Assembly (NCBI GenBank): GCA_030562195.1
Contig: JAUJPP010000005.1
Coordinates: 35,947,106 to 36,011,105 of the forward strand
Origin: Nipponacmea schrenckii
Lineage: Eukaryota > Mollusca > Gastropoda > Lottiidae
DNA length: 64,000 nucleotides
Reading direction: 5' to 3'
Under the pieces are notes generated by a model that saw only the letters and a program-made list of their open reading frames with translations, was not told the DNA's origin and made no database searches. The position numbers and the translations under genes were made by a program. Position 1 is the stretch's first letter. Every line of letters begins with the position of its first letter. This document shows, piece by piece, positions 599 through 29,812 of this stretch.

Positions 599-742
599 CC
601 ATTGTTGGTGACATCTGTAATTGTCTTCCATAGATACTCAAAGGTATCCTGAGACATTGGAGGTTGAGAAGGAGGTTGAGAATTGGTATTTCCTGACAGG
701 GAATTCTGTGATGAGGTCATGGCACGGTGGAATTTACCATAC
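599..742 (-). CDS. p53/p63/p73-family protein, N-terminal transactivation-domain exon (partial gene)
   Basis: A single internal exon on the minus strand with clean junctions: acceptor tttcag before position 742 and donor GTAAGT after position 599. The first family-like ATG is at 718-720 and the exon codes 40 residues plus two bases. Residues 23-34 read SQDTFEYLWKTI. This matches the p53-family transactivation helix, with F27, W31 and I34 in the spacing of the p53 F19/W23/L26 triad that binds MDM2. S23-Q24 and T26 fall where p53 has S15-Q16 and T18. A Gln/Pro/Ser-rich stretch precedes it. In this family the segment recruits coactivators and MDM2; the protein is a nuclear transcription factor for damage response and development. 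The frame is also open upstream to the acceptor (YGKFHRA), so an earlier coding exon is possible. The DNA-binding domain lies off the left edge. It could be named p63/p73-like or p53; one exon cannot separate them. The divergent WRAP73 neighbour supports the p73-type locus. Confidence 0.8.
717..740 (-). promoter_or_regulatory. Short uORF overlapping the p73-like start codon
   Basis: In the same exon an upstream ATG (738-740) opens a seven-codon frame (MVNSTVP). Its stop overlaps the putative start in the arrangement ATGA at 720-717. If the upstream exon is non-coding, ribosomes would meet this uORF first and could reinitiate immediately on the overlapping ATG. The sequence arrangement is certain; any translational effect is inference. 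Confidence 0.4.
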
Positions 743-927
743 CTGAAATAATCAGAAAATTAAATTGTTGGACAACTTTTTTATAACTTTTTAAAGAGAA
801 GACAAGTCCCATATGAAATGCAAGACATTTTTCTTGCCAAAATTTCAAAAAGGACAAAAGATAGGAAAAGAATAGGAGAATTTGTTCCTAAAAGAAAAGA
901 CATGCAGATAAAATTAGTAGAAACGTG

Positions 928-1330
928 ATACATAATATTTTCTAATTAATGACATAAACAGAAATAAAGTACTTGTCCGATGCCCGACTTATGAAATTTT
1001 GTTCGTCAGCACATTTTATGAATAATGTTGCACTTGTTTGACTGTCTTGCTGGGATTTGAGGTGCGTTCGATGCCCTCTTTAAGTCGTTTGCCATTGAAA
1101 TAATAGTGGAGGTGTCGCCCAGGAGCAAAAATCGAACGCAACCACCTCACAGATACTCGTAATGCACTGTTCACATGATGTCTTTGAACACTTCTGTCAG
1201 TTCAGAAATTATTTACTCAACCTTCTTTTTTTGTACAGATTACAAAGAGCCCATACATTAAAGAAATACATAAATAGTTTACATGCAGGCCTCAGTACGA
1301 TAGAGACAATATCTTAGAATAAACTTATTC
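928..1330 (-). repeat. Dispersed ~400-bp repeat, copy 1
   Basis: Read on the minus strand, this segment matches 7608-8010 on the plus strand over about 400 bp with scattered substitutions. Shared landmarks are TTTATTCTAAGATATTGTCT at one end, GAGGTGGTTGC then TTCGATTTTTGCTCC in the middle, and a GGACAAGTA block near the other end. It has no long open frame. A small frame, MDCEYEEVYYVRTSSDEE, ends just at its border (about 1326-1382, minus). It is a degenerate interspersed element whose class I cannot tell. It lies in the presumed 5' region or first intron of the p73-like gene. Confidence 0.6.
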
Positions 1331-1457
1331 TTCGTCGGACGAGGTGCGTACATAGTAGACCTCTTCATATTCACAATCCATTGTTATTTTTACTACTACG
1401 AAATGTTTATATTAAAGAAATGTACAAAATAAATTATTTTTATTCACCAAAATATCT

Positions 1458-1574
1458 GTTACCGTTTTGGTGGAGTTGTTACCGTTTTAACCGAAAATTT
1501 TTGTTACCGTTTTGGTGGAGTTGTTACCGTTTTAACTAATAAAATTTGTTACCGTTTTGACATGTTACCGTTTT
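1458..1574. repeat. Six-copy GTTACCGTTTT array
   Basis: The 11-mer GTTACCGTTTT occurs six times without mismatch at 1458, 1478, 1503, 1523, 1548 and 1564. Start-to-start spacings are 20, 25, 20, 25 and 16. The first four copies therefore form two 45-bp units, each with one copy followed by GGTGGAGTT and one followed by AA. The array lies between the p73-like exon and WRAP73. It may be a cluster of protein-binding sites or debris of a repeat; the reverse complement contains AACGG, the core of a Myb-type site. No function can be shown from the sequence alone. Confidence 0.7.
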
Positions 1575-2337
1575 AACTGGATACCCATAGATCTGGTCAT
1601 AATGAAGTTGTGGGTATGTTCTATGACCTATCTAATTCTAATGGAGAATATTTGGTTTCAACTTCCTACTAAGTCTACAGAATAGCATTCAGTTATAGAT
1701 CTAGATCTTTGAGTAAACGGTTTTTACCCTGTTCTTGTTTTTAGGTCTTTACTTGTCACTGTTATTTTGTTATAGATTTGTTATGAAATGATTGTATGTT
1801 TTACTTAATGGAATTATATTTAGCCTCTAAGTGGATGACATTGGATGAAATGTTTCTGTGTTGGGCCAGACATTCCGCTAGAGTTCTTTGTGCTAAATTC
1901 TAGGTATACTCAGCAAAGTGTTAAACTGGAACACCAAAGTTTGGGTTCTAACCAGTAGGCCTAGTTTATTGATTATTTTTATTGCTACAAAAAAGACCAA
2001 GCTAAAGGTGATGTGTAAGGTTTAAAAACTATCAACTTAAACTTAACAGATTTGAATTGAAACCTATGACAAACTCGAGGAAGTACGATATAAAAGCACC
2101 ATCTTTTAAATCAACAATTAATAAGAAAACTAATCTACATCGTCGAGTCAGCAAAATTGTTTTGACAGCGTCTATTTAGCCTATACACTGAGTGACAGTT
2201 CACAGAATTTTATCTCCATTTATAATCAAGACGCCTTTGCTACGAAAGTCAGAGAATATCCGATGGTCATCACCCAAACCCTGAAGCTTTAATTCATTAA
2301 TAAGGAATGTTGTAGTGTTGAAATCTAAAATTCTTAC

Positions 2338-2400
2338 CATACATAAGATTATCATAAAGCCCAGTTTCAGCCTACTCCATTCTGTTAGCAGCACGTGTTT
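2338..2400 (-). other. Possible non-coding 5' exon of the p73-like gene
   Basis: The minus-strand sequence ending at 2338 is followed by a good donor, GTAAGAA (RC of 2331-2337). Splicing this donor to the acceptor at 742 would place a stop upstream of the ATG at 720, which suits a 5' untranslated exon. Its own 5' end is not defined and I picked 2400 only as a rough limit. The same bases could belong to an unrelated frame (2200-2394, minus, GTG-started, ending GDDHRIFSDFRSKGV...). This is a weak prediction. Confidence 0.2.
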
Positions 2401-2630
2401 TGATCATCGCATGCTATGACATATAGGGCATATTCCTCCGCGACAATAATAATAACAAAACACTTTTAGTGATACTCCTTCACGAAATTCACCAAAATAA
2501 AATTAATATATATTTAAATAGTGGTACATTTTTCTCTCCTCCTTTTAGATCAGCTATAACTCCATAAAGTACTTCTGTCAACTTCGAACTATTTCACCTA
2601 ATTACAAATGTAAACAAGCGCTCCACCGTT

Positions 2631-2640
2631 TTTGGCGGGA
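2631..2640 (+). promoter_or_regulatory. E2F-type site in the divergent p73-like / WRAP73 promoter region
   Basis: TTTGGCGGGA is an exact match to the classic E2F/DP binding consensus. It lies about 295 bp upstream of the WRAP73 start codon and between the two divergent genes. A second E2F-like core, TTGGCGC, lies at 2826-2832. Mammalian TP73 is a known E2F1 target. Whether these sites serve either gene here is inference. Confidence 0.5.
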
Positions 2641-2842
2641 GTTGTTGCGCTTGGTCAATTTATCTTGGTGACCTCCCATGACCTGTCAAATTAAATGCCA
2701 CTTAAAAAGTTATCGGCGTCGTTACCAGATAATTAACATCTAATTTAATTTTAATTGAATATCTAAATCTTTAAATCTATTAATTGAATTAACTGTCACA
2801 AATGTAATCACGCAGAAAAACAACATTGGCGCTGTTTTCAAA

Positions 2843-2878
2843 ATGGACGACTTCACAAGTTGGTTCTTGTCAAAATGA
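2843..2878 (+). promoter_or_regulatory. Possible uORF in the WRAP73 leader
   Basis: An ATG in good context (caaaATGG) opens an 11-codon frame (MDDFTSWFLSK) that ends 56 bases before the WRAP73 start codon. It counts as a uORF only if transcription starts upstream of 2843, which cannot be seen here. The main start at 2935 has G at -3 and begins the conserved MNFSELF sequence. Confidence 0.25.
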
Positions 2879-2934
2879 TTTTTTTTTCTCTAAAAGAAGA
2901 CTGCCAGTTAAAGATTTTCTTGAATTTGTAAGAC

Positions 2935-5900
2935 ATGAATTTTTCTGAGTTATTTCATCAATCTGGACAGCTTTGTCGTTTTTCTCCTGATGGAAAATAC
3001 CTGGTAAGTGAAGTTTTTTGGATCTAGAATTTGAAAGTGAAAGTAGGCCCAGTACTACCTGCTAGTAGATAGTTAGCCGTGTATTGCACTGTCCAGTCTT
3101 GTGATTCACATTCCCCTGATTTATTTTAATAATACCCTTTGACACCTTTAATATATGATGATTTGGTGCACTTTTCTACTAGCCATATTATTAATATTCA
3201 AGACTAAGAAATAAAGCAGACCTTTTCGCAATGTTTAGATTATGTCATTTAACCTGAATTTCCACCCACTAGGCCTACTATGGTACAACAATCTGAATAA
3301 AATCAAATACAAATCAATGTTCTCAGAATCTGCGAGCAGACAACGTAGCTTAATTGTTCTATGTGGGGTTCTTTTGAAACTACTTAACGTTGGAAAGTGT
3401 TACTTAGTTACACATTTATCTGCAATTAGATAAATAATTAACACTCGACTCAATTAGGTGTTGATTATAGTGTTATAAACATTTTAATACTTTCTTTGTT
3501 CAGCTGAATAGAATCTAATAAATTTGATTATTAGTACAATGATCTGTCTCCTAAGTTAAATCTTCAGAATCTCTTAAATCTGTTTTTAGTTTAAATATAA
3601 TAGTGTAATAAAGAGTTAGAATAAAACATGGTGAAAAAGCTAAAGAGTTTCAGAAAACAAAATTGACTTCACTGGATTAACAAAAGCTGATGATATACGT
3701 AGTTGAATATTGAGAGAATACATTTTCATAATTCTAAAGTTTAAAAGAGAGGATTTATTCTCCATTGAAAAGAAAGCATATTTAATTACTTCAAGTCTTT
3801 GAACATGAGCAAAACTTACACAAGGAGATACACGATAAACAATTTATTTTGCAGGCATCAGCAGTTGATTACAGACTAGTCATCAGAAATACAGATACAT
3901 TACAAATAGAAAATGTCTTTTCTTGTGTTGATACCATCAAATATATTGAGGTTTGTTCTATGTAGATATTTCTTAGACAAAAAGTTATAAATATTAAAAC
4001 TGTACTTAGCATTTGATGCTAAAAATCTTAATAAGATGTAAAATTCTTACAGATTGTTAATTTTATAGCTTATTTACAGCATAACATGAATCTCTTTAAT
4101 TATACTTGCTTTGATTGAATAGTGATTACAAATATCTTTAGAAAGACTCAATAATTTTCACTTTAACATTCTTCTTTGGAGCTATGGTGGCTTAGTAAAA
4201 TGGATTCATCTACATGTATGTATAGAAATAAATTTTCCTCTGAAAGAGCATACAGGCAGTAAATTGCCAAGTTATCTACTCTGCCATATATCTATATATG
4301 GGTAAATTATATATTTTCAGTGGTCAAGTGACTCAGGCTTTATTCTCTGTGCCATGTTCAAAAGATCTATAGTGCAGGTAAACTATTGATATTGTATTTT
4401 GTTGATGGGTTTACAAACAGATATTTAGCAAAGAAACCTGAAACCAAATTATTTTAATTCTTTGCCTACATTTTCTGGAGACACATTTCTTCGACTTTCA
4501 TAATTTTGAAGTCAAATGTCTTTTATGGTCATTGTGGAATTGTTGTCCACCTGACTCTTAAGTCAACTTGTTTACAATACCGGTATCCATAATACAATTT
4601 GGTTAACTAAGTTTGTTTCATGTAGGTATGGTCTATGGAGCAACCGGAATGGGTATGTAAAATAAATGAAGGACCAGCAGGATTAGTACATGCTGTTTGG
4701 AGTCCTGATGGTCGACATATTCTCACTTCATCAGATTTTAATGTAAGTAAAATCATGACAAAAATGAAATTTTATGATTTTCTCCAAAAATACATTTCCA
4801 TAAATTTTCTGCATTCATCAGTCTTCAGAAAACTTAGCCATTAATAATAATGATAATAATAATAATATCTTTATTAGGGTGATAAAATGAGACCCTGGGC
4901 CTTTCTTACATTTAGCCCTATAACAATGAAACAAATAACATGTATACAACTAACTGTACAAGGGATACAATGGTCATAAAATATAAAGTCATTTATCAGG
5001 TGGTAACTACATAATTATAAATATAGATACAGAAAAGTTTTATAATGTATTTCCATAATGAATTTTAGCTAATCGTTTAAAAACTGTAATAGATCTAGAA
5101 TCTTTTATAGTTTGTGGTAACTTATTCCACAGTTTTCGACTTTATAACTAACTCAATTATTACTCATTTTATAAATCGACTGATGTAACCTCTATCAGTC
5201 ACTTTTGGTGAATTTCAGACACTGGCTTGAAACAAATGTTTCTGGTCATATGATTGCAGACAGTTTGCCTTTTTATTCAGTGACACACAGAATACTTACC
5301 TTAAATAACTTGTGACACCACTTTAAGATTCTCAAAGTAGCAATGATTTGCTCCTGTCTTTTGTATGTTTAGGCCACACCAAATGGATTAATTGGTCGAC
5401 GGATTTGGCGCACAGAAAAAATCAAAAATAGAATTTTTTTTTTTTAAAAAAATTGCCGCACGTAATTTTCTGTCTTAAAATCCGACGACCGAAAATTTTC
5501 ATACGATCAGGTTTTTTGTGGTACTTGATCGCTAAATTCAATGTTATCTAGTTTTTTTTTAATTATACGCCCACATGAAATGGGGGGCGTATATTGTCGT
5601 CACCCACGTCCGTCCGTCCGTCCGTCCGTCCGTCCGTCCGTCCGTCCGTCCGTCCGTCCGTCCGGTCCGTCCGTCCGTCCGTCCACAATTGCTCGTAAAC
5701 ACTCTACACGTTGTAATTCTTGACGGATTTAGATGAAACTTAATATGAGTGTTTATGATCACGCAAGGATGAACCCTATTGAAAATCAGCGAAATCGGAA
5801 AAAAATTAGTATGAGTTCGTGCCCTTGTTCTTGAATGGCTCGTAAACACTCTACAACGTGCAATTCTTGACCGATTTTGATGAAACTTGGTGTGAGAGTA

Positions 5901-8900
5901 TGTTATAACTCAAGGATAAACCCTATCGAAAATCAGCGAAATCGAAAAACATTTAGTATGAGTTATTGCCCTTGTTCTTGAAAACGCGTTCAATTTTAGC
6001 TTGTAAACATTCTTGAGAGAACAATTTTTAATGGATTTTAATGAAACTTGACCTGAGTATTTGTTATCACCCAAGGATGAAGCCTATTGAAAACCAGTCA
6101 AATCGAAAAAAAATTAATATCAGTTATTGCCCTTGTTTTTGAAAACGCGTTCAATTTTTAGCTTGTAAACACTCTAGAAAGCACAGTTATTGACCGATTT
6201 TGACGAAACTTGCTGAAATTGTTTAATACCACCCAAGAATGAACCCTTTTGAAAATAGCACATATCGAAATATATTTAATAGGAATTATTGCCTTTGTTC
6301 TATAAAATGTGTTGGATTTTTGAATTGTAAACACTCTACAAGTCACAATTCTTGAGCGATTTTGACATAACTTGGCATGAGTATTTGTAATCACCTAAGG
6401 ATGAACCCTATTGAAATTCAGTTAAATCGAAAAATATTTAGTATCAGTTATTGCCCTTGTGTTTGAAAACGCGTTCAATTTTAGCTTGTAAGCACTCTAG
6501 AAAGAACAATTCTTAATGGATTTTGATAAAACTTGGCTTGAGTATTTGTTTTTACCCAAGGATGAACCTTATTGAAAATCAAATAAATCAAAATATATTT
6601 AGTGCCAGTTATAGCCCTTGTTCTTGAAAACGCGTTTAACTTTTTGGCTAATAAACACTCTAGAAGGTACAATTTTTAATGGATTTTGATGTAACTTGGC
6701 TGGAGTATTTGTTGTCTCCCAAGGATGAACTCTATTGAAAGTCGAAAAATATTTAGTACAAGTTATTGCCCTTGTTTTTGAAAACGCGTTCAATTTCACT
6801 CGTAAACACTCTAGAAAGAACAATTTTAAAAGGATTTTGATGAAACTTGCTTTTAGTATTTGTTTTCTAAGAAGGATAAACCCTATTGAAAATCAGATAA
6901 ATCGAAAAATATTTAGTGTCAGTTATTGGGCCTGTTTTCAAAATCGCTTTCAACTTTTGGCTTGTGAACACTCTAAACATTCATTTTTGACAAAACTCGC
7001 TGAAATTGTTTAATATCAACCAAGGATGAGCCTTATTAAGAATTAAAAATATCAAAATATTATTAAGGGTGAACCCTATTGCAAATCATAAAAATACCGA
7101 AAAATATTTAATGAGTTGAGTTAGGTACAATTCTTGACAGTTTTTAATGAAACTAGAGACCCTAGAAAAAAATATATGGTGGAAGGCTGAATATTTCATT
7201 CCACTTTTGTAACCTTACTGAAAAGTTTTTATTTGAAATAAATGCTGCCAGTGGGCGTATATTACCTTGCCTGGCAAGCTATCTTTTTTTCTTATCGTCA
7301 TCTGAAGAAATATGTCCCTTCTCATGTGTGCAAAGAGGTATTAATCTTTATCACAACTCGGCCACCGGAAACCCGATCAATTGGACCGTTTTCTTAGACA
7401 ATTCGACCAAGAGATGTTAACGGCCACATGATAAAGATTGTCATAGATATAACAAGGTCGTTCAGGGTCCGAATTAATTTATTTTTTTGCATGGCAGTGT
7501 TTTGCTCTATAGAACAAAATTGGATAGCAATTTAGAATTTGTGGAGCAGTTTGTCTCTGAGAATAACAAAAAGTTGACAAAACTGAGACACCTTAAGTTT
7601 TAGTGCTAAAAATGTTTATTCTAAGATATTGTCTCTGCCGTACTGAGCCTTGCATGAAAACAATTTATGTATTTCTTTAATATGGGCTTTTTGTGATTTG
7701 TACAAATCGAAGCAGCTTGGATAAACAATCTATGAACTGTCAGAAATGTTGAAAGACAACACGTGAACAGTGCATATTTACGAGAATCTGCGAGGTGGTT
7801 GCATTCGATTTTTGCTCCCGGGGTGACACCACCAATATGATTTCAATAGAAAAGGATACTCATCGAACGCGCCCAAACGTCCAAACAGACAATCAAACAA
7901 TTACAACACTATTCATAAAATGTGCCGGCAAAGTAAATTCCATTACTCGGGCACCGGACAAGTAGTTTATTTCCAAATCTTTCATTAATTCGAAAATCGT
8001 ATGTATCGCTAAAAATACTGCACTTCTGCACGGAAAATACATCGCTTTGTATCGATGCGATACGGCTTATTTCGAACCCTGTCGTATTAACTGCATGATC
8101 GAACGCATATTCTGATCTGACCGGAGGTGATTCTATTACCGACTAAGATAGTGAATAACGGATTAACAGTTAATTCTTGGTTTCGTTTTCATGAAGAGCT
8201 GATTTTATTGGCTCTTGGTACATACTTTAGATTTTTTTTCATGAATTATACACTATTAAAGAATAAACAGAACAAACATGTTTATAAAAATAAAAATAAA
8301 TATAAAATCGCGTGTATTTTGATTCACTATAATCCACAGAGCAAAATTAATTAATATATAAAAAAAAAAAACGCGCTTCTATTTTGATACACCAGAATCC
8401 GAGGAACAAAAATAATATCCCAAAAAAAAAAAAAAAAAATTTGCTCGCTCGCTCCCTTTTTTCCAGCTGAAAATCCGTAGACCAATTGTTTTGTTAGGGG
8501 TGGCCTTAACTTATTTTTCATGAAATTTTACAACTTGGCCTTAGTTTATATACTCACTGTTCTTAATATTTTAATTGGGAATACCAAATACAATCATTGT
8601 TTGAGTGAGAAACAGTTTATGTCTTTAAAACAGGATGTTCAACTAGAAACTACAGGACTACAGGATATGTACTGTCACCTAAATATTTATTTGGTTTAAA
8701 TTGCTCAAAAATCAAATTCAATATTCATTTTTAATACCTAAATCTGCTTGAATTCACAATTAACAAATTCCATCAGGCATTAAACGATTTTAAAATAATT
8801 ATATAATTGAATAACAAAATTATTCATTCATTTGTTCATCATTCATTCATTCAATGATAAAATTTGATTTATTTATATTACTTACAACTGAAACCTCCTG

Positions 8901-11900
8901 ATAAGTTATCATTAATCCATTTATGTATGTATAATTCTATGTACTGATAATAATATCAGTCTGTTTCTCTCTAATTGGTTTATAAAAATATTAACTTGTA
9001 GTAAAATTTGATGGAACATCTGTATGCAAATTAGCTGACAATATGGTTACTTAAAATAGACAGTACATGATTTTAAAGATGATGTAAGATTCACAATGTG
9101 TAAAAGATCAATTGTTCAAAAATGAAATTAAGTCTTGTCCATTTTATTGTACCTCTTGACATTGAATACTGAGTTCAATTACCATTACATTGAATGATTT
9201 CAAGTCAATATTAAGTTAGATTTATTTTTTTATGTTATAAATCCCTTATTGTCTTGAAAAAAATATATTGTAGATATTTAAGATTGGGAGTTTTCTTAGG
9301 AGGAAAGTAACATAAAACTTTCTTTGATTTCATTTCTAGTAAAGGAATGTTATTATGATAAAACTGAACATGTATCATACAAATATTTAAACTTGTTACT
9401 AAATAATATTTTCAATTTAACAATTTTACTACAACATTGCTTTCTTGTTTCTAGATTAGAATAACAGTTTGGTCGTTAGTTACCAAGTCTGTCTCTTATA
9501 TTAGATATCCTAAACAATGTGAAAAAGGTAAGTTGATTTAAAACCCATGACAAAAAGGCTTTAATAATCAAGAATAATCATTTTAATGATAATGAAGTAA
9601 CTCATTACTATTTAATCAATGAGTGTGAAAATTTAATTTATTTTCAATAGTGTAAGACTCTGTATTAAGGTTTTTATAGGAATTTGATTATTTTTATCTT
9701 CATTGTAATGGACTATACATGTTAAAAAAAACTTCAATTGATAGAAATGGCTTGAAGCAGAAACCATTTTCACTGTGGCACACAGCCTGGCAATGCCTGT
9801 CTTCATTGTCCATCAATTGAAAGAAGTATGACCTGAAATTTTATTTATATCATTAATTCTAGGTTTAGCATTCAGTAATAATGGTAAATTTATGGCGCTG
9901 GCTGAAAGACGAGATTGTTCTGATTATATCAGTGTGTTTGCCTGTGACAACTGGTCGTTACTAAAGGTAAGATTGATAAACCATTTAAGAACAGCGACCT
10001 CTCAACAGGCTAGATAATTATGGTACCAACTGAAGTCACATGATGTAAAGTCATATTATTTGAATTATATTACCTGGTAACTTGAAGTTTAATATATACA
10101 ACATTATATTGAACTTTCAGAGTTAGTGGGATGTCAGAATGGAGCCCCTGATAATTTTTCTCAATTCAACTTTTCAAATTGTTTTCAAAGCATTTTGTCC
10201 ATCAAAATTGAGTTTTTAGCTTAATTTGTCTATTTTACCTTTGTAGAATTTTGAATGTGAAACAGAAGATCTGGCTGGTATACAGTGGGCACCAAATGAT
10301 TGGGTTCTAGCTGTTTGGGAGTGTGAATTAAAGGTAGGCACACATAGTCTTATAGGTTATAAATCTACTCTCTCTGAATATGATTATTAAAGGAGAGGTA
10401 TGTAAACTTATCATAATGAAAAACATAGTGAATTATCCCTAAAAATATGCTATTACATCTAGGTATTCACTTGATCAAACTGAATTTGTTGAGTATTGTT
10501 AATTAAGCAGCTTTATATATTTTTATTGTTGGCTATGATAAGATTTTCTAGTTATAGTTAAAACATTTGAACATGTAGACTTCAGAGAAATATTATCTAC
10601 AATTAGCCATTCAATTTGCTAAAATCCATTCAGAAGTTTTTTTATACCTAGCTAAAACAATAACAAACATAAATTGTTTTTGTAATGTTTAGGTTAACTT
10701 TTTAAAAAGTTTTGGCTTTTAGAAGTTAACTGTTGGTTATTTTAGGTTAAAACTTTCAGATACGTTCATGTACATATTTTGATAAATTTTTTTCATAAAT
10801 TTGAAAAATATTTTTTTTGCTCCTAAAGGATATAGTTGTCTAAATCCAAGCTTAAACAGATGAAAGAGCCCAATACAGTAACCTGTACTTTTACGAAATC
10901 ACAATTTAAAAATTAACAATAAAGGGGACTGCATTTTAAGAGCCTAAGAGAGGGGTAGTAAAACAAAATCCTTGCTCTTGGTACACTCTATAAGTCAATA
11001 TTGAACATAAGCTGAATAAATAGATTAAAGCATTAGTGAATGCTGATAACAATTATTATGTAAGTTTGAAAGAGGTCATTTGGATTACCTGTAATATAGA
11101 AAGAATGAATGAAATGTTTGAATATTGAAAAGATACTTCAAGAATAATTGGAGACGTAACGTCCAGTCAGCAAGAAGCTAAAACAATATGTGGTTAATAA
11201 GATGTTTCTTCTTAAAACTTCCTGGGTATTTAACTTCATCATTGTTTTTCATTTTATTAGATATTATACAATTTTATTATGGAAAGAAATTTACTCCATA
11301 CTTTGAGAAGAACAATGGAACTTTCCAGATTGATAAATCGGGCATAGGAAGTGCCTTGAGACATTTTGAATAATTGAATGAACGTTTAATCTGAAGAAAT
11401 TTTTGTTTGGTAGCACAGTACATTTGCTAAAGTTTTTTTTATTTTCTTAAATTGAAAAATAAATTTGACCAATTTATAAAATTATCAATTGATATTTGTA
11501 TTAATGAGATAGTGTGTATTACCTTGCCATGCGATAATTTTCATCAATAAAACTATTGATTCACTATTTCCAGGGGAATTCTGGTATAATATAAAATAAT
11601 ATCAAGGTGAGAATCAATCAAGCATGAAAAGAATATTGTCTATCGTTATGGTCAACTGGTCAGACAGTTATTGTTTATTAAAATCATCCTGCGAAACCTC
11701 CGGTCAGTGTTTCCTTGTCTTTTGTTGTCTTCTTGGTAATGACTTTTGACTTACTGTTTTACTGACATGTCAAAAGTCTGGAAAATGATCGATGATTTTT
11801 CTCAATCTTGGACGATGGATAATTTGTAATGGTTATTTTTATTTAATGTTTGTAATTTTATATGGGGGAAAGTGTGGCTTGTTGCCTTTTAAATTTACTT

Positions 11901-20900: not shown

Positions 20901-23900
20901 GATCTAATAATTTTTCACCGAAATATTGTGTTTGACTTATGTTCGCGTTTTCATAGTGCAACTCTGCTCACTCTACAGACAACAATTATTTAGGGATTCT
21001 TTTGATTTTTAATTGTCTGCTTAAAATGCTGTATGGAAAAGACATGAACTAAGTGTGATTGGACAACAAACAATGATTTGTACTTGCAATCAAAGCTGCT
21101 GGTGGGCGTATGTCACCTTGTTTCGCAAGGCTATCTTTACATCAAATCTTGACCATAAAGATATACAGATCATGACAAAATATGATGAATACTCATCTAG
21201 AATATTACTAATACAGATGTTGGAACTTTGAAACTTTCTAGAAGTATCAGACCATAATCAAACTAGGATAGATTTGATAATAATTCTAATAATATTTATT
21301 GAAATCATTACAATACATAGCAATATCCATATACATAATAAAAGAGTGATTTCTTTCCTGGCCGTATATGGCCTATGATACACTACATTTAAAGCAATAA
21401 TCGAAACTGTGATGTGGATGCTTGAATGAAGTCCAAAGATTACTCCTTAGCATCAATAGAGTTATCTCCCATACTCATGTTCATTGTAGGTGAGAATATT
21501 GAATAATAGAACATGGCAGAAGTTGATAGAATTTTCACATTCTGAAACTATTGATACAGAAAACGTGGTATGTTTAGTTAAAATAATGAACATTTCACAT
21601 ACTGCCCCTTGTGATTTCATGTCTGGGCATGTTCAATTTGTTTTGCAGAATAATCTCGATAAATTGGTGTAATGTAATGTAGTATAATTCTACATTATGA
21701 TTAACAGTAATATAAATGGGAAAAGTCCAGACTGAGAACAAAACGTATTTAAGCAACCTAGTGTACATGTGGCCAAGCAGTTGATATATTGTTTGTTTGT
21801 TTGTAGGCAGTGTATAAAGAGATAGAAACTAGAACTCCTACAGCACCAGCAGATCTAGATCCTCCTACAGCATCACTCTTTAATTCACAAAGTAAATGTA
21901 AGTAGATGTTAGGAGGCAAATAAAAACTCATTTGTATTTAGTTTATTATACAACAGAGAAATGGTGGTGACCAGCTAGCTTTGATCAGGGGTATGAAATA
22001 AGTCAAATCAGTGTTGTTTGAGAACAATAATTGAGAGCTAGCTTGATAAATGTTTTACTTTATTAACGTGATGTGAAGTAAACACCAACATTTTATTGTG
22101 GTCATTATTGCAGTCTTGATGTTATTGTCTTGATGAATTTTTTATTTAGATGTCTAATGGACTGGAAGTTCATGATATGTTCTTCACATGTCTTTTATAA
22201 TGGAAGTAAAATTTTCAATAATAAACCAAAGGGCAAAGTAAAGATTTTCTTAAAAGGTAGCTATAATATATCCTTTTAAAATATTGTTTATTATATATAA
22301 AATCTGTACTTAATATTTGTTATATTTCAGATGAATGTCAGCCATTACCTGTTGAAGTACCAACAGTCAAACCTAATGTTAACAAAGCTCACCCTAAAAT
22401 AGGTGTTAGCACTGCTTACTTTAGTCCTGATACCAAATACATGCTCACCAGAAACGGTAAGTTTGTACAGACTCAATTTGGAGAGGCTGACAATGAATAA
22501 GTAGTTCCTCTGATAATGGCTGATGACTCAAAGTAAAGCCAACAGTTTGAAAGGGAAATTAAAGGTTAATGCTGCTGTCATTCCTATGTAAAGATTAGTT
22601 TATATTTGGTATAACCATTATACAGGTTCAACTTTTGTTTCTTTTCTCTAAAACCTTTGCACAATAATTTGTAAAATGATAGTATAAAACAATAAACTAT
22701 ATAGAAGACAGCCTTTCTTTTGTGGTTTGGATTTGCTATAGTACTTTAGGATAAGAAATGGTGCGTATTATTTCAATACATGTTGAACAGTATAAATTTT
22801 AATTCTCGATAATAATCTTGTAGATAATATGCCATGTGTACTGTGGATCTGGGAAATTAAAAGATTAGCATTATGTTCAGTTTTAATACAGGCAGCTCCT
22901 ATTAAATGTAAGTTATCATTCAGAACATTCTTTTTCTTCTAAGGGAAGCCAGAGTTCTTGCTAGTTAAAGGCGTTCTTGCTTAGCTAATACCACTTTCTT
23001 CTTTCACCCAATATGGAGTATAAAAATAGGCTGAAACACCATTTCAATCTGAGGAACGCCAATAGCTATGATCTATTTCCTGTGATTTTGTCCCAAACAA
23101 TCTGGAAATAGTTGTGACAAGATTAAACCTGAAACCAGTCTGATATATTCTTGTTGGTTTTTCAGGTGTAAAGTGGGATCCAGTGAAACCACGTTTAGCT
23201 TTATGTACAGGTAATAATAAATTATATATGTGGTCACCAGAAGGTTGTTTATCTGTTGATGTGCCTGCAGGTTGGTAAAACATTTTTTAAATTTCTGCTG
23301 CCTGTCTATTTCTGTTGAAGGAGGATAGGGAGTAAGGTGCTGGGCCTAGGGTTTAGGTAAAACCTCCAGTGATGCCAGTCAGAGGGCCTGATTGATAAAT
23401 AATGCAAGGGAAAGTAGCAGTCTTACTCTATTGGGCATTATATTATTAATTAAAAAGTTTTGTGCTTTACCATGAACATAAAAGTTTTTATTTCAAAATT
23501 AATTTCCTATCAGATGAAAAAAATTATCACCTAGGTGAAAATTAAAGTTTTTAATTCAAAATAAAAATCTGAATATATCACTAAGAAAATTGAACACTTT
23601 TCCTGAGAATGAAAATTACATACTCATATACATCTCTTCCACCAACTATATAAACGTATATATACAAGATAAGTTTGTCAGAGGCCTTGGGAGAAATTTT
23701 GTCAACACAAATCCAATCATCGCTGCGTTTCTTGATAAAAGAAAAGTGGCCATAGCAGCCAAGAAAGTACAAAGTTTGTGTTGGCATGACATTGTGAAGA
23801 TGTCCAGTTGAATTTTTTGTAGTTCCCTATGTGGCTTATTCTAATATTTGATATTGCAGGTCGTTTTGCTGTTCATTCATTATCATGGCATCCTACTGGA

Positions 23901-23975
23901 GATTCTTTGCTATTATTAGATAAAGATATGATGTGTGTGTTGATTAATGCTGACAATCATAAACGCGAATCCTGA
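2935..23975 (+). CDS. WRAP73: WRAP73 (WDR8) WD40-repeat centrosomal protein, complete 14-exon gene
   Basis: Coding exons: 2935-3003, 3855-3950, 4321-4377, 4626-4742, 9455-9527, 9863-9966, 10247-10333, 13705-13839, 21490-21567, 21807-21897, 22331-22456, 22824-22907, 23166-23270, 23860-23975. All introns are GT...AG, phases agree at every junction, and the joined frame is 1338 nt (445 residues). As I recall, the human protein has about 460. The start MNFSELF is the family N terminus. WD-type strands are visible as [72 protein letters not shown] and [13 protein letters not shown], consistent with two propeller lobes. The family acts at centrosomes and centriolar satellites with SSX2IP in spindle anchoring and ciliogenesis. 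It is divergent from the p73-like gene on its left and convergent with TPRG1L on its right. Introns 4 (4.7 kb) and 8 (7.6 kb) are swollen by transposons and a minisatellite. No frameshift or premature stop was seen. Confidence 0.95.
4843..5335 (-). mobile_element. LINE 3' end (degenerate), in WRAP73 intron 4
   Basis: On the minus strand the segment encodes a recognisable reverse-transcriptase C terminus, [12 protein letters not shown]...VFKRLAK (about 5133 down to 5042). It ends in a 3' tail CCCTAATAAAGATATTATTATT (in pieces) around 4878-4843. The LWN.LP...I..S..I..FK pattern followed by an ATT-rich tail is typical of CR1/RTE-like non-LTR retrotransposon ends. The upstream part carries several stops, so it is a dead 5'-truncated copy. 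A comparable fragment lies at 41.9 kb. Confidence 0.65.
5607..5684. repeat. (CCGT)n microsatellite
   Basis: A run of CCGT tetramers of about 78 bp with one interruption (CCGGTCCGT near 5660-5670). It belongs to the left part of the Pearl-like element. It creates Arg-Pro-Ser-Val and Gly-Arg-Thr-Asp repeat peptides in false reading frames on the two strands. Confidence 0.95.
5690..7120. repeat. ~160-bp tandem repeats (about nine units)
   Basis: Units are marked by GTAAACACTCT-like starts near 5695, 5840, 6001, 6163, 6326, 6487, 6651, 6801 and 6962, so the period is about 145-164 bp. Each contains GATTTTGATGAAACTTG, then CCCAAGGATGAACCCTATTG, then a cgaaaaATATTTAGTA block and GCCCTTGTT...AAAACGCG. 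Units have diverged by point changes and small indels, and the last ones decay. The open frames seen here on both strands repeat the same peptides and are by-products of the repeat. Confidence 0.85.
7608..8010 (+). repeat. Dispersed ~400-bp repeat, copy 2
   Basis: Inverted relative to copy 1 (928-1330, minus) and matching along its length. It lies within the Harbinger-like element in WRAP73 intron 4. It may be part of the interior of that transposon family, in which case copy 1 is a relict of a second insertion, or a separate element. No coding frame. Confidence 0.6.
8308..8440. repeat. Diverged ~60-bp tandem duplication with A-rich tails
   Basis: Two adjacent stretches share the pattern CGCG, TATTTTGAT, CAC or ACACCA, ATCC, GAGCAAAA or GAACAAAA, AATATA or AATATC, then a run of 10-17 A. 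The two copies differ at many positions. This is just inside the right end of the Harbinger-like element. Confidence 0.5.
15841..17281. repeat. ~25-bp minisatellite array in WRAP73 intron 8
   Basis: About 58 tandem copies of TTCATAATACTTGACC plus ACTTTTAGC (24-25 bp), over roughly 1.44 kb. Variants are not mixed at random. The left part is mostly 25-mers with GACC or GACT and ACTTTTAGC. From about 16420 to 17000, 24-mers with CACC and ACTTTAGC, ACTTATAGC or ACTTAAAGC dominate, and the right edge returns to the 25-mer type. This suggests local amplification of sub-blocks. The repeat does not interrupt any exon. Confidence 0.97.
19275..19400 (+). mobile_element. tRNA-derived SINE fragment
   Basis: TAGCATAGTTGG at 19285-19296 matches a pol III A box. 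The body contains CCAGTGGACCCAGCTGTATA, a block also seen in the SINE near 60 kb (CCAGTCCACCCAGATGTAAA). The B box is degraded. It is an old insertion in WRAP73 intron 8. Confidence 0.45.
20789..21137. mobile_element. Short Pearl-like relative
   Basis: It starts TATACGCCCACA and ends GTGGGCGTA followed by TGTCACCTTG and GCAAGGCTATCTT. These are the same termini as the larger element in intron 4, which ends GTGGGCGTATA, TTACCTTGCC, GGCAAGCTATC. It is only about 350 bp long and lacks the microsatellite. Each end carries a diverged core with the pattern TCTAC...CAACA and GATTCTTTTGATTTTTA repeated about twice. It lies in WRAP73 intron 8. Confidence 0.6.
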
Positions 23976-24100
23976 TCGACACATTAGTGAAAATCTGGAC
24001 CTTAGTGCTAAATTATCATATACAGACTGCAAATAGTTTTTCGCTGGAACTTGAGTTATTGGTATCGTCATTGCTGTCCTCTATCAAATCATATATTTAT

Positions 24101-24106
24101 AATAAA
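24101..24106 (+). terminator. Candidate WRAP73 polyadenylation signal
   Basis: AATAAA lies 126 bases after the WRAP73 stop codon (23973-23975). It is the first good hexamer downstream and gives a short 3' untranslated region. In this AT-rich sequence the hexamer is common, so this is position-based. Confidence 0.45.
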
Positions 24107-24129
24107 ATTTTTATAAACATAATACATGT

Positions 24130-26675
24130 CATGTTGGTCATTTGTCCTCTTTCTGCCACATGTGTTTGTGGTTAACAAGCTCAGTGGAATTGACATATTT
24201 TCCATCCAGGGTTCGAGTTTTAAACCATTAATTTACTTTTGAGTCTCAAAAGAGAATTCAGAAACAAAGGGATCAATTTTTGAAATCTTCCTTTTTTTAA
24301 GCTCAATATGTTTGCTTGTTCTGCCATACTTTTTTAATGTAGCAGACTTAATCGGACCATATATCCATGTAACAGTCTTAGTGTTAGGATATCATAGAAA
24401 CAAGGTTAAAAGTTAAAGATCCTAGGAAATCCCAGTGCCAAGATTGTTTTGAAGATATATGTGGTCATGACTTAAATAAGTCATATAAATAAATAAAACA
24501 TGAAGGCTATTATGAATTGAATCTTGGAACACCAGTATCTCTTTATATTGTAGTTTATTTTAGTAGTTTATAAAGAAACACAAAATTAATATTAAGCAAC
24601 AGAGAAATCACAGATTGTAAGCATTAACAACTAATTATATTTCGACTCAATATAACAGGGGATCTTTTAAATTTAAGACTAACAATAACCATTAAATGGA
24701 ATGGTCCTTTGACTTAATCATGAAAATATTACAACTTCTACAGAATTACAAATCTGAAAAATGATAAGAACTCTTTGGAAGTATCAACTTGATACTATCA
24801 AGTCATAAAGGGTTTAAATTTTGGTGGGTTGCATTTTGAAAAATTGTGATACATTGTTTGAAATTAAATGATTTCAGGGACATCCTAAGACTGAAGTATC
24901 AAAGATCAATAAATTCCCAAAATTATGAAAATATATATAGCTAATGAGTTTAAAGAATATACTGCTATAATATAATGAAAAATCAAAGATATTAAATATA
25001 AATGCATCTACCAAGTAAAAATCAACAAAATCATAAAGTGAACACTCTAATCACACAACTTCAAAGTATATTATGCATAGTGTACTTCGAGAAATCAGAA
25101 AACAACAACTATGTTCACAACTTGTCTATTTGATATATTCCAGGAGAAAAGAAAGTATTTAATAGCCCAAATGTGTACTTGGTTCAATGCTAGTTATGTT
25201 TGTTTTTAAGTCATGTCGGTATGTGTATATTGCCTGTTTTTATTGTCATTTTAAACTTTCCTTTACCTTTAAATAATTTCAAAATCAACAAGTATTATAA
25301 ATAAAACAAAATCAACAATAAACTTAACTATAAGTTGTAAAATTCTATCCATATGATCCATAATGGGTTGACTTCTCAAAATAAAGCCTTTTAAATAGGT
25401 GAATTGATCATTACCATTAAATACAGATATAACAATGACTTTTTATTTGACAAATCTAGGTTTTCTGACTAAACTGGTCAAAAATTTCAATAATAGTTAT
25501 CTATTGCAACAGGTTATGGACTCGGCATACTTGTACTGTATATATTCTTAAGTGCATAATATACTGTATGTGTGTGTCTTTGTTCAACAACATAGTAGAG
25601 TTTCAACAGCCCACATTTTATATGAATAATAATACAAAACATCTAATAATATGTAAGAAAAATTAAATGTTAAAATATATCCATAAATCACCCAAAATTT
25701 GGAGAAAAAAAGGTTCAGCATACTAAAATAAAGTGTTGAAAAAGGTTTCATGATGTACTATTCAGCAGTCTATGTCATGGATCTTCAAGGTTAATAAGTG
25801 TCTTTTTGATCAAATTATTTCATATTGAAAGTTCTAAATTCAAAAAGATGTGACAATTGACACAAAAAAGAAATGGCAAAGATTGAACGTGGGGTGTAAA
25901 AATCAACATATTGAACCTACAATTGCCCCATGTCTATATAATAAATTTAAGACATAGGTTTAAAAATAAACTAGCTTGACTTCACATTTATCATATAACA
26001 TAGAAATAATAGCAAACATATAAAACAGTACATCACAATAAGAAAGATTTGCATGAACATCACATTTCAAATTTTTCAAACAAGGCACAGTTAAATAATC
26101 TGCCTTTTTCTGTGCATGGACAAGAGATTGTCTCAAACCATTGTTTAATAGATTTGAGATCTGTCATTATCAAATACTAATAATTAAATACAACATTTCA
26201 ATATGAAAACAAATAGATATTGATGCACTTACAAATAACAGTGCAACATTAAATTAAATCTCAACCATATAATCAAAATATAATATTTATTATTAAAATA
26301 GTGATCAATTTATTTATTATTTCTAATAAAAAGTAGACGATATTAATTGTTTGTGGGTTTGACTTCTTGAAATTGTCTACTTTGTGCTCATTAGTTTGTG
26401 GGTGAGATAATTTCCAATTATTTCTGTATTAAGTCTTGAATGATCCTACCTAAAATAGTGCTTTGTTGAATTAGCACCTAAATTGGTTAATTGAAGAATT
26501 ATTAATTTATTACACTGTTCAGCATTAACTGATATATTAAAAGATGATAGCAATTTAGATATGATTTAAAAGAATAGAGTGTCTTCAATTTCTAATCAAT
26601 GTATTATGAGAGCAATTGGCCGTTGAAGATTGGCACAGTTAAAATATGAACTAATTCTGTGCATAATAATGTTAT
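24130..26675. other. Intergenic region between convergent WRAP73 and TPRG1L
   Basis: AT-rich sequence of about 2.5 kb with no open frame resembling a known protein, no clear RNA gene and no transposon ends that I could pair. Both flanking genes end towards it, so it should hold both 3' ends. Confidence 0.6.
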
Positions 26676-26677
26676 TA

Positions 26678-26706
26678 TTTATTTGACAGAAATAAGTATG
26701 TTTATT
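26678..26706 (-). terminator. Candidate TPRG1L polyadenylation signals
   Basis: AATAAA on the minus strand occurs at 26706-26701 and again at 26683-26678, about 50 and 75 bases after the TPRG1L stop codon (26759-26757). Either could be used. Further hexamers occur downstream, as expected in AT-rich DNA. Confidence 0.4.
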
Positions 26707-26756
26707 AATCTGAATTCACAAACAACTGAGCAGATTTTTTGGGGATAATAACGATT

Positions 26757-29248
26757 TCAATAACAAATACCATTTCTATCTCTAAAGAAACCAATCCCAC
26801 TTTGGTTATGTACAACAGCAGCAATACTAGCGTAGCTGTTAATAAGTATTGGACCCTCAACTATTGTGATATTTTCACCAGGACGTTTCACTTCATAACA
26901 TTTACTAGCAGCCTGGACCAAACTCTCATAGAAATCATCTACATTGTAAGTAGTAGTTTCATTTTCTTTAGGGTGATATAGAACAGGGTGATGAGCAAAA
27001 CATAACCATGGAATGTCTGTGGACCAAGGATTCCAGCGCTGACCAAATGTTGGTTCCTGACCTTTATTCCAACGAATCTGGATTCCACCATGCTTTCTAT
27101 CACTATAAAGAAGATAGATTTATATGAAATTGAAACTGTCAGATCCTACAGTCCTTGGTGCTTTCTTGTGTTTCAATATAAATATAAACCAAAAACCATA
27201 TAAATGCCCATATTAAGTATTCTTCACTTTGTTCTTCCATATACCGGTACATGTACATTACACATACAAATATACATATATGTCAGTCCAATATACAATA
27301 ACCAATACTTACGGCATGACAGAATAATCTGGATATTTGAAGTCACCAATAGCGATAGTATCAATACCATGTAACATTATACGTTTAAACTCAAATAAAA
27401 CTTGGGTTATAAAGTTATATTTAAATACCAAAATAGAATTCTCAGTTAATATTACCAACTTCTCTTTCTCCAAATTCCAGTGATCAATTCTGGGTAAAAA
27501 AAATTAACAAAGTCATTAAACATGAAATCAAATCTTAACTTATCATGGATCTACTTTGAACACAAAATTTGTCTGCAATTCCTTCTTAATAAGCTTCTTA
27601 TGTGCTTATAGAGACTTGAGACAAAGAAGTATTTCTACCTATCATAAGAACACCTCTATTTTCGATTTATATATATGTATTAGCTGTCAAATAATCAAAA
27701 ACATATACCGGCATATGAATAACTGAAAATAAGGGAATCCATCTTTAATTTCTTGAGTATTATTTGTATAACTTGAGGAGTCTTGATACATTCATAAAGT
27801 ACTTACTCAGATAACAACCATCTACCAATATATTTTCCATCTAAATCATCATTAATATGTTTCTTACATTCATCTACAGCAATATCAAAATTCTTTCCCT
27901 GTTACAGAAATAAAACATTAACCTAAATAAATTTACTTAAAAAAATATAAATTTAATCAGACTGCAGCACTATCAGCAACATTTAAGCTGAGATGTTCTT
28001 CAATTAAAACAATATTGTATGAAATAGCTTGTTTTTTTATTAATCTGTGCAATAATGTAATAATTAAGGTAAAATTACGAATACAATAAGGAAAAACTTA
28101 GATCTTACAAATTCTATTTTAGTAACAAAGTAACTACCGTACCAGTATATTACTGGACAATAATATAATTCCCCTCTTAATCGAAATTTATAATACAATT
28201 TAAATGAACTTTATACCAAGCAATAATAAAGGATGCAATATTCAACCTAAATTTCACAACTAATGTAGCCTAAAGCCTTTGACTAAGGTTTTTCTCATGT
28301 AGGCTTATTTACCAATACCAAAAATAATTAGATAAGCTATGGTAACACAAAGTTTGAATATAGAATGAACATTATTAATTTTTCACTAATAACAAGATTT
28401 TAAGTGAATACAATTGAACTCCTAAAAAGTCACTTTTATTAACAATTTTAACATGCCGGTTTGCCAAAAACATAGATCATACACACCAGTAAAAGGGCAA
28501 TTAGATCAATGTGCCATTAAAATTTAGAATATGAATGATTAAACTTACTAAGAAGACTTAAATTACCAATACTTAAAATATTTTACTTTATGGAATGCAA
28601 CAATCTAATATGAAATATTATTAAAGGCCTAGGCCTAATCCATTAGACCAACATGCATGTAGGCCTATTTTATATCCTTGTTACATAATGCAAATCTAAC
28701 TTTATGAGGCAAGAGCTAAACTGCTAAAAAAAATAAAAAACTGTAGTATCAACATCAAGGTTAGTACATGTAGCAGGGCAATATAAAGGGTTAGACTAAT
28801 TATCAATAATGTTAGTTTAGGAAAAATGCAATTAAAGCATGCAGGTTGTATTTACCGCTACCTTGTAACTAAAATAACTCTTAGTTTCTCCGTCGGATTT
28901 GATACAGCCAGGTCTCATTGACGTTCTACTTGTTGTACTCTGAACACTTCTGCCACCAATCACAGAGCCTGGACGGTTCCTATTAAACCCACTACCCTCT
29001 TCCTGGTTTCCAGCAGCCGAGTTGGTTGTTGTTGTAGTTTGTTTTGGAGACTTACTGTCCGACCCAGGTCCAGCAAAATTTACTGTAACCGAATCAGACG
29101 CAGTTTTATTGGTGTCATTTAACTCCAATGTTGCGCCGACAAATTGGCCTTCTTGTGTTCCTTTATCCTCATCCTCTAATGGAATGGTGTGGCTTCTTCC
29201 GCCAGTTGCAGGAGAGGCGTTCTTTTCTTGATCGCTTTTTTCTGCCAT
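26757..29248 (-). CDS. TPRG1L: TPRG1/TPRG1L (Mover) family protein, complete four-exon gene
   Basis: Exons in gene order: 29248-28862, 27898-27807, 27489-27313, 27102-26757. All introns are GT...AG and the joined frame is 1002 nt (333 residues). The first 115 or so residues are polar and low-complexity (Ser/Thr/Gly/Gln rich, MAEKSDQEKNASP). The conserved hSac2-type region follows: TKSYFSYK, GRWLLSEIDHWNLEKEKLV, ILVFKYNFI, DTIAIGDFKYP, GIQIRWNKG, RWNPWSTDIPW, then IVEGPILINSYASIAAVVHN near the C terminus. These match vertebrate TPRG1L block for block; as I recall, human TPRG1L is about 272 residues, so the N-terminal tail is longer here. In vertebrates the protein is a synaptic-vesicle peripheral protein. 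Exon 1 could use the donor after 28862 (best protein alignment) or after 28856 (adds Val-Ala). The start ATG is the first in frame. It is tail-to-tail with WRAP73. Confidence 0.92.
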
Positions 29249-29812
29249 TTTGTTTCTAAATAACGAGTTATTTCCCCTTCCTTGACGTGACGGAACGCGT
29301 TCGATTCATTCGCTTATACCTAAACCAGTTCAATATCTCTATAATCTTATTAGCTGTTTAGAAATCGGTGACCAATAAAAACGTAGTTTACATTTTAAAC
29401 TATTACGCTCATGATCACGGGTCCATGGTTCATATATCAATATACCTGATTGAGCAATACCCATAAGTGGAGGTTGTTTTTTAGAAAATTATTGCGCAAT
29501 CTGTTTGTTTATTGATTATTCTAAGAAAATGCAGGCTACACGGCATACACCCTTGATAATTTATTCAAACTTTGAAGCAAATGAGAAATAAAACTCTAGA
29601 AATGAAACCATTGATTATGGTTGTTGAAGTGTTACAAGTTATTTAAGGCACTGGCACAAGGTTTGTGTGGAGTTCACTATTGTTAAGGTTAATATGATGT
29701 TAAAAATGAGAAAACATAGTACTTCTAACATATAGCTCAAAGTCAGAAAAATGATCATAATATCATTATTGTTAGATACTAATACATACAAATACAAATC
29801 CCTTTACTGAGA

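What the first reader, a model, noticed from the sequence alone, without database searches (positions are those of the whole stretch)
599..29248. p73-like, WRAP73 and TPRG1L are linked in the same order and orientation as in human 1p36
The window shows a p53-family TAD exon (minus), WRAP73 (plus) and TPRG1L (minus) side by side with no other recognised gene between them. In human, as I recall, TP73 is head-to-head with WRAP73, and WRAP73 is tail-to-tail with TPRG1L; TPRG1 likewise neighbours TP63. The same three-gene arrangement in a likely protostome implies the block predates the protostome-deuterostome split and the vertebrate TP63/TP73 duplication. It also suggests that a shared promoter or regulatory landscape has held the genes together.
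Basis: partly seen in the sequence, partly recalled or inferred. Interest (0 to 1): 0.9.

Follow-up and report, generated by a model that had tools for sequence, protein, structure and literature searches.

The report
Ancient p53-family, WRAP73, TPRG1L gene block
In a limpet genome an N-terminal exon of a p53-family gene, the centriole gene WRAP73 and the gene TPRG1L lie side by side in the order known around human TP73, and because other animal phyla likely keep such genes linked too, the trio probably dates from the bilaterian ancestor and is predicted to be held together by a shared promoter.

Summary
Confirmed. The window comes from a limpet close to, but probably not, Lottia gigantea (TPRG1L 94% identical). 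It holds a p53-family transactivation exon (599-742, minus; Pfam P53_TAD 2.2e-9), a complete 14-exon WRAP73 (2935-23975, plus, 445 aa) and a complete 4-exon TPRG1L (26757-29248, minus, 333 aa), with no other confidently matched Pfam family between them. The order is that of human 1p36 and three fishes. The DNA-binding domain would lie beyond the left edge; the own-genome search did not complete, but the L. gigantea protein with the matching N-terminus has that domain. Four species have gene tags 1 to 5 apart. So the block likely predates the protostome-deuterostome split and the TP63/TP73 duplication. CpG content shows an unmethylated-looking 2.2-kb gap between the head-to-head genes, which fits a shared promoter but does not prove one. 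A new member of a known kind: the ancient microsynteny block.

The parts
599..742 (-). p53-family gene, exon with the transactivation motif; ATG at 720, GTAAGT donor at 593-598; the gene runs off the left edge
   Evidence: Pfam P53_TAD 2.2e-9; Lottia gigantea TAp63gamma N-terminus 73% identical, E 3e-13
743..2934 (.). gap between the head-to-head genes, likely divergent promoter region
   Evidence: CpG observed/expected 0.83 against 0.14 on the p53 side and 0.30 in WRAP73 exons 1-4, but 0.15 in one 250-base stretch (1751-2000); start sites unknown; no convincing upstream coding exon
2935..23975 (+). WRAP73 coding region, 14 exons: 2935-3003, 3855-3950, 4321-4377, 4626-4742, 9455-9527, 9863-9966, 10247-10333, 13705-13839, 21490-21567, 21807-21897, 22331-22456, 22824-22907, 23166-23270, 23860-23975
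   Evidence: homology
23976..26756 (.). gap between the tail-to-tail genes WRAP73 and TPRG1L
   Evidence: CpG observed/expected 0.25, like the gene bodies; no Pfam match in its ORFs of at least 52 aa
26757..29248 (-). TPRG1L coding region, 4 exons: 28862-29248, 27807-27898, 27313-27489, 26757-27102
   Evidence: Pfam hSac2 6.6e-22; 94% identical to L. gigantea. The first exon may end 6 bases later (donor choice; the L. gigantea protein has VA at that place)

Best explanation
This is a three-gene block in a limpet, a p53-family gene head-to-head with WRAP73 and WRAP73 tail-to-tail with TPRG1L, that is likely inherited from the bilaterian ancestor and is predicted to be kept together mainly by a promoter shared between the p53-family gene and WRAP73. 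Inferred: that same contig mostly means near neighbours, and that the arrangement is ancestral. Untested: that the 2.2-kb gap works as one bidirectional promoter. In this reading WRAP73 supplies centriole triplet linkers and the p53-family gene guards cells, and one germline-active promoter would fire both; TPRG1L, on the other side, is freer to leave. In vertebrates genome duplication would have split the block into TP73-WRAP73-TPRG1L and TP63-TPRG1 (the latter pair recalled).
For: Gene models and homology. Same order in human and fish lists. Same contig by identical length: WRAP73/p53 family 12 of 16 species, TPRG1L/p53 family 11 of 16, WRAP73/TPRG1L 5 of 9; coincidences between different species 0 of 716, 0 of 1009 and 0 of 1173. 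Close gene tags: Patella TPRG1L 014417 and WRAP73 014418; Elysia WRAP73 023356 and p53 family 023358; Solemya p53 family 009624 and WRAP73 009627; Nucella TPRG1L 010534 and p53 family 010539. WRAP73 and a p53-family gene on contigs under 1 Mb: Lamellibrachia 382 kb, Physella 428 kb, Lingula 461 kb, Elysia 741 kb. CpG-rich gap bounded by CpG-poor gene bodies. Elysia and Physella have WRAP73 with the p53-family gene but TPRG1L on another contig.
Against: Not on one contig: Candidula, Mya, Paralvinella and Sinanodonta for WRAP73/p53 family; Candidula, Elysia, Mytilus californianus, Physella and Plakobranchus for TPRG1L/p53 family; Candidula, Elysia, Lymnaea and Physella for WRAP73/TPRG1L, though several of these contigs are short. 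Same contig in chromosome-scale assemblies may reflect only old chromosome-scale linkage. Tags are not always close: 49 apart in Batillaria, thousands in Pinctada. TPRG1L/p53-family linkage is about as frequent as WRAP73/p53-family linkage (11 of 16 and 12 of 16), which the promoter model does not predict. Deleting a TP73 enhancer left WRAP73 and TPRG1L stable. The gap's CpG value (0.83) equals that of the whole region right of TPRG1L. No promoter motif was significant after the number tried. The DNA-binding domain of the window's gene was not seen.
Confidence: 0.6

Rival explanations
1. Bystander model: the block is ancient, but WRAP73 and perhaps TPRG1L are kept beside the p53-family gene because enhancers of the p53-family gene lie in or beyond them, not because of a shared promoter.
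For: WRAP73 spans 21 kb with long introns. TPRG1L stays linked about as often as WRAP73, and TPRG1 stays by TP63 without WRAP73 in between (recalled).
Against: A known TP73 enhancer lies inside TP73, and its deletion left WRAP73 and TPRG1L unchanged (PMC12866144). Elysia and Physella lack the TPRG1L linkage. No conserved non-coding element could be looked for, as no other genome's DNA was at hand.
Confidence: 0.2
2. Passive retention: the block is ancient and has simply not been broken yet, with no selection on the arrangement.
For: Molluscan genomes keep many old neighbours; one study of 49 genomes counts 256 microsyntenic blocks as new in the bilaterian ancestor (PMC8851819, passages). Linkage is missing in several species.
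Against: Linkage in six phyla for the p53-family/WRAP73 pair is long survival for chance, but I ran no control with random gene pairs.
Confidence: 0.17
3. Coincidence: three unrelated placements in this one limpet.
For: Given adjacency, about 1 in 24 arrangements of three stranded genes would match by chance (own count).
Against: Same-contig linkage recurs across phyla, and Patella has adjacent tags for TPRG1L and WRAP73.
Confidence: 0.03

Closest known systems
TPRG1L-WRAP73-TP73 at human 1p36, and tprg1l-wrap73-tp73 in zebrafish, medaka and fugu
   Same: The same three genes in the same order; head-to-head and tail-to-tail strands as recalled for human
   Different: Here the p53-family gene is the unduplicated invertebrate one. 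The right side of the block is free of recognised genes for 35 kb in the ORFs scanned, whereas human has MEGF6 and ARHGEF16 nearby
TP63-TPRG1 at human 3q28 (recalled)
   Same: A p53-family gene beside a TPRG1-family gene
   Different: No WRAP73 between them; not examined in any call
TP53-WRAP53 head-to-head pair at human 17p13 (recalled)
   Same: A p53-family gene divergent from a WD40 gene
   Different: WRAP53 belongs to another WD40 family (recalled); the window's WD40 gene is WRAP73, so this pair is probably a separate event
Ancient bilaterian microsynteny blocks (PMC8851819)
   Same: Neighbouring genes kept together across bilaterian phyla
   Different: That paper's main text has no mention of WRAP or p53; its block lists were not readable here

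Membership tests
p53/p63/p73 family | N-terminal transactivation motif | tested here: met
   Pfam P53_TAD 2.2e-9; match to Lottia TAp63gamma
p53/p63/p73 family | DNA-binding domain (PF00870) | tested here: inconclusive
   Not in the window; the gene runs off the left edge and the own-genome search did not complete. The matching L. gigantea protein P0168 has it
p53/p63/p73 family | Tetramerisation and SAM domains | not testable with these tools
   Beyond the window edge; present in L. gigantea P0199
WRAP73 (WDR8) | Full-length WD40 protein closest to WRAP73 | tested here: met
   445 aa; the best hit is a Patella protein named WRAP73 in one source, 85% identical, and the other rows among the 120 listed of 846 are at 55-66% and, where named, mostly WRAP73
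TPRG1/TPRG1L | hSac2 domain and similarity to TPRG1L over the domain | tested here: met
   hSac2 6.6e-22; named hits are mostly 'tumor protein p63-regulated gene 1-like'
Ancient bilaterian microsynteny block | The same genes linked in protostomes and deuterostomes | tested here: met
TPRG1L linkage outside spiralians rests on the human and fish lists
Ancient bilaterian microsynteny block | Same order, strand and short distance in other invertebrates | not testable with these tools
   No annotated DNA of other animals at hand; gene tags are close in four species
Bidirectional promoter | Two opposite start sites close together, with co-expression | not testable with these tools
   Start codons 2.2 kb apart and a CpG-rich gap; no transcript data

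The most novel reading that the evidence does not exclude
One divergent, germline-active promoter has driven a p53-family guardian gene and the centriole gene WRAP73 since the bilaterian ancestor, wiring genome surveillance to centriole supply; the human TP73-WRAP73 pair is its direct descendant.
Probability: 0.2. Interest if true: 0.8.

Novelty: new member of a known kind. Interest (0 to 1): 0.5.

Why it matters
It fixes the likely ancestral neighbourhood of the p53 family. It would explain why TPRG1 sits by TP63 (recalled) and TPRG1L with WRAP73 by TP73: two duplicated copies of one block, one of which lost WRAP73. It makes a shared-promoter hypothesis for TP73 and WRAP73 testable by comparison across phyla. 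It also gives a synteny test for which p53-family gene is the ancestral one where a species has several: in the chiton Liolophura, of four contigs with a listed p53-family gene, one also carries WRAP73 and TPRG1L.

Tried and rejected
p53 DNA-binding or SAM domain inside the window: none found. An upstream coding exon of the p53 gene in 743-2934: eleven candidate ends, none convincing. p53 response elements: 2 loose pairs in 64 kb against 0.62 expected (0 to 3 in 50 simulated sequences), neither near a promoter of the block. Promoter motifs in the gap: 11 patterns tried; one E2F-type core at 2634 (0.042 expected) and seven GTTNCC half-sites (2.9 expected, six of them in or beside a tandem repeat at 1449-1559); neither stands after 11 patterns. 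Genes to the right: Pfam on 130 of the 174 ORFs of at least 50 aa beyond 29300 gave nothing at E up to 0.01; 148 of the 174 were printed, and I left out 18 of those, four of them poly-G/C. tRNA scan and Rfam at gathering threshold: nothing. A supposed link of WDR8 to p73 mouse work was a false text match, WDR81. A multiciliation gene paper does not mention WRAP73 or WDR8.
Full report
The p53-family exon lies on the minus strand at 599-742. It follows a good acceptor, has an ATG at 720 and ends at a GTAAGT donor in phase 2. Its 41 residues hit Pfam P53_TAD at 2.2e-9 and align with the N-terminus of Lottia gigantea TAp63gamma at 73% identity, E 3e-13. That Lottia protein has the p53 DNA-binding and tetramerisation domains, and the Lottia DeltaNp63alpha product also has a SAM domain. 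The window ends 598 bases further left, so these domains cannot be seen here. In-frame sequence before the ATG, YGKFHRA, resembles N-terminal extensions in Haliotis (CRYGKIVVP, P0177) and Physella (CMYGKVNVP, P0196); it is possible that coding starts further upstream, but no matching exon was found.

WRAP73 is complete. A recalled human protein was used to place exons. The model has 14 exons and 13 GT-AG introns in frame. The 445-aa product is 58% identical to the recalled human protein, 85% to Patella caerulea SNE40_014418 and 55-66% to the other rows listed (120 of 846 hits listed). TPRG1L is complete: 4 exons, 333 aa, hSac2 6.6e-22, 94% identical to L. gigantea LOTGIDRAFT_228747 and 68% to Patella SNE40_014417. 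In a 20-row tree it pairs with L. gigantea (100/99) and next with Patella (98/99). So the source is a limpet near Lottia; 94% for TPRG1L and 73% for the TAD exon make L. gigantea itself unlikely.

No other gene was confidently recognised inside the block. Of the 107 ORFs of at least 52 aa that end before 29310, hSac2, P53_TAD and WD40 matched in one ORF each, plus one borderline eIF3a match at E 0.008. To the right, 130 of 174 ORFs of at least 50 aa gave no Pfam match at E up to 0.01. Short exons can be missed by such scans.

Order elsewhere. A list of human 1p genes reads MEGF6, MIR551A, TPRG1L, WRAP73, TP73, SMIM1 (PMC9318831, one passage), and another paper names WRAP73, TPRG1L and MEGF6 among the neighbours of TP73 (PMC3905963, one passage). 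A fish legend lists tprg1l, wrap73, tp73 in a row for zebrafish, medaka and fugu (PMC7014666, passages). The figure itself was not seen, and the human strands are recalled.

Linkage across animals. From the named rows, one search counted as follows. WRAP73 with a p53-family gene: 12 of 16 species (Dendrobates, Dreissena, Elysia, Glandiceps, Lamellibrachia, Lineus, Lingula, Liolophura, Ostrea, Owenia, Physella, Solemya; not Candidula, Mya, Paralvinella, Sinanodonta). TPRG1L with a p53-family gene: 11 of 16 (Argonauta, Batillaria, Bradybaena, Dreissena, Gigantopelta, Haliotis, Liolophura, Nucella, Octopus, Pinctada, Tubulanus; not Candidula, Elysia, Mytilus californianus, Physella, Plakobranchus). 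WRAP73 with TPRG1L: 5 of 9 (Argopecten, Babylonia, Dreissena, Liolophura, Patella; not Candidula, Elysia, Lymnaea, Physella). All three share a contig in Liolophura and Dreissena. Identical lengths between different species occurred in 0 of 716, 0 of 1009 and 0 of 1173 comparisons. The species are those that happened to be named in two lists, not a designed sample. The lists for WRAP73 and the p53 family were capped at 120. Several species have more than one p53-family or TPRG1L gene, and a match of any copy was counted.

Same contig is weaker than adjacency, above all for whole chromosomes. Closer evidence: gene tags one apart in Patella (TPRG1L, WRAP73), two in Elysia and three in Solemya (WRAP73, p53 family), five in Nucella (TPRG1L, p53 family). 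WRAP73 and a p53-family gene share contigs of 382 kb in Lamellibrachia, 428 kb in Physella, 461 kb in Lingula and 741 kb in Elysia. Reading tag numbers as position is an inference; in Batillaria they differ by 49 and in Pinctada by thousands although the contig is shared.

The two junctions seem to break independently. Elysia and Physella keep WRAP73 with the p53-family gene but have TPRG1L on another contig, with the reservation that their contigs are short. TPRG1L stays linked to the p53-family gene about as often as WRAP73 does, which a promoter shared by the head-to-head pair alone does not explain.

CpG profile. Observed/expected CpG is 0.14 on the p53 side (1-742), 0.30 for WRAP73 exons 1-4, 0.25 for exons 5-14, 0.25 between the tails and 0.45 in TPRG1L. 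It is 0.83 in the gap 743-2934, apart from 0.15 in one 250-base stretch, and 0.83 right of TPRG1L. TpG/CpA is 1.19 to 1.35 in the CpG-poor stretches except TPRG1L (1.14), against 1.10 in the gap and 1.14 on the right. I read this as germline gene-body methylation with an unmethylated divergent gap; it is an inference from base composition. The gap is no richer in CpG than the right-hand region, so the profile shows where methylation stops, not that a promoter is there. TPRG1L's upstream edge rises likewise (1.56 at 29251-29500). Intron 4 of WRAP73 is at 1.01; it holds tandem repeats.

Mechanism. The Tetrahymena homologue of WRAP73 is part of the A-C linker of centriole triplets (PMC12506977, passages), and Wdr8, the medaka orthologue, is a maternal factor needed for centrosome assembly (PMC5253655, start of abstract, passages). 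p73 is required for multiciliated cells in vertebrates (PMC5729534, start of abstract; PMC8470418, passages). A common promoter would make sense in germ cells or ciliated cells, but no expression data were at hand. Against a common landscape, deleting an intragenic TP73 enhancer left WRAP73 and TPRG1L stable (PMC12866144, one passage).

Literature. Searches in the held library for WRAP73, TP73 and synteny, p53 family, mollusc and synteny, TPRG1L and WRAP73, WDR8 and p73, p63, p73, amphioxus, synteny and TPRG1, WRAP73 and mollusc (none), conserved microsynteny and TP73, WRAP73 and bidirectional promoter listed no title or abstract that describes this block outside vertebrates. PMC5543598 treats human chromosomes 1, 3 and 17 as a paralogous block for the family and does not mention WRAP (passages and one section). 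PMC8851819 has no WRAP or p53 in its main text. Supplements and subscription journals were not searched, so the block may already stand in a genome-wide table.

Noticed in passing
P0128, P0138 (Babylonia) and P0131, P0147 (Nucella): Two TPRG1L copies in neogastropods. In the tree the Babylonia copy on WRAP73's contig pairs with the Nucella copy that is not on the p53-family contig, and the other way round. This hints at a duplicated block sorted differently, a possible parallel to TP63-TPRG1 and TP73-WRAP73-TPRG1L.
   Followed up: partly
P0202 (Plakobranchus ocellatus): A p53-family protein is named 'WD repeat-containing protein wrap73-like' in its source record, possibly because two adjacent genes were mixed up in annotation.
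   Followed up: no
5607-6975: CCGT repeat and a roughly 150-161-base minisatellite in WRAP73 intron 4, in a CpG-rich stretch inside an otherwise CpG-poor gene.
   Followed up: no
15842-17281: A 25-base tandem repeat of about 58 copies with strong strand skew in WRAP73 intron 8.
   Followed up: no
29893-31161 and 33437-34431: Two copies of a repeat, 90-98% identical in its pieces, just upstream of TPRG1L.
   Followed up: no
29249-64000: About 35 kb without a Pfam-recognised gene in the ORFs scanned and with CpG near 0.83, in sharp contrast to the block.
   Followed up: partly
2629-2641: TTTTTGGCGGGAG, an E2F-like site in the gap; E2F1 control of TP73 is recalled from the literature. Not significant after 11 motifs.
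   Followed up: partly
Liolophura sinensis: p53-family genes on four contigs in one chiton; one of these contigs also carries WRAP73 and TPRG1L.
   Followed up: no
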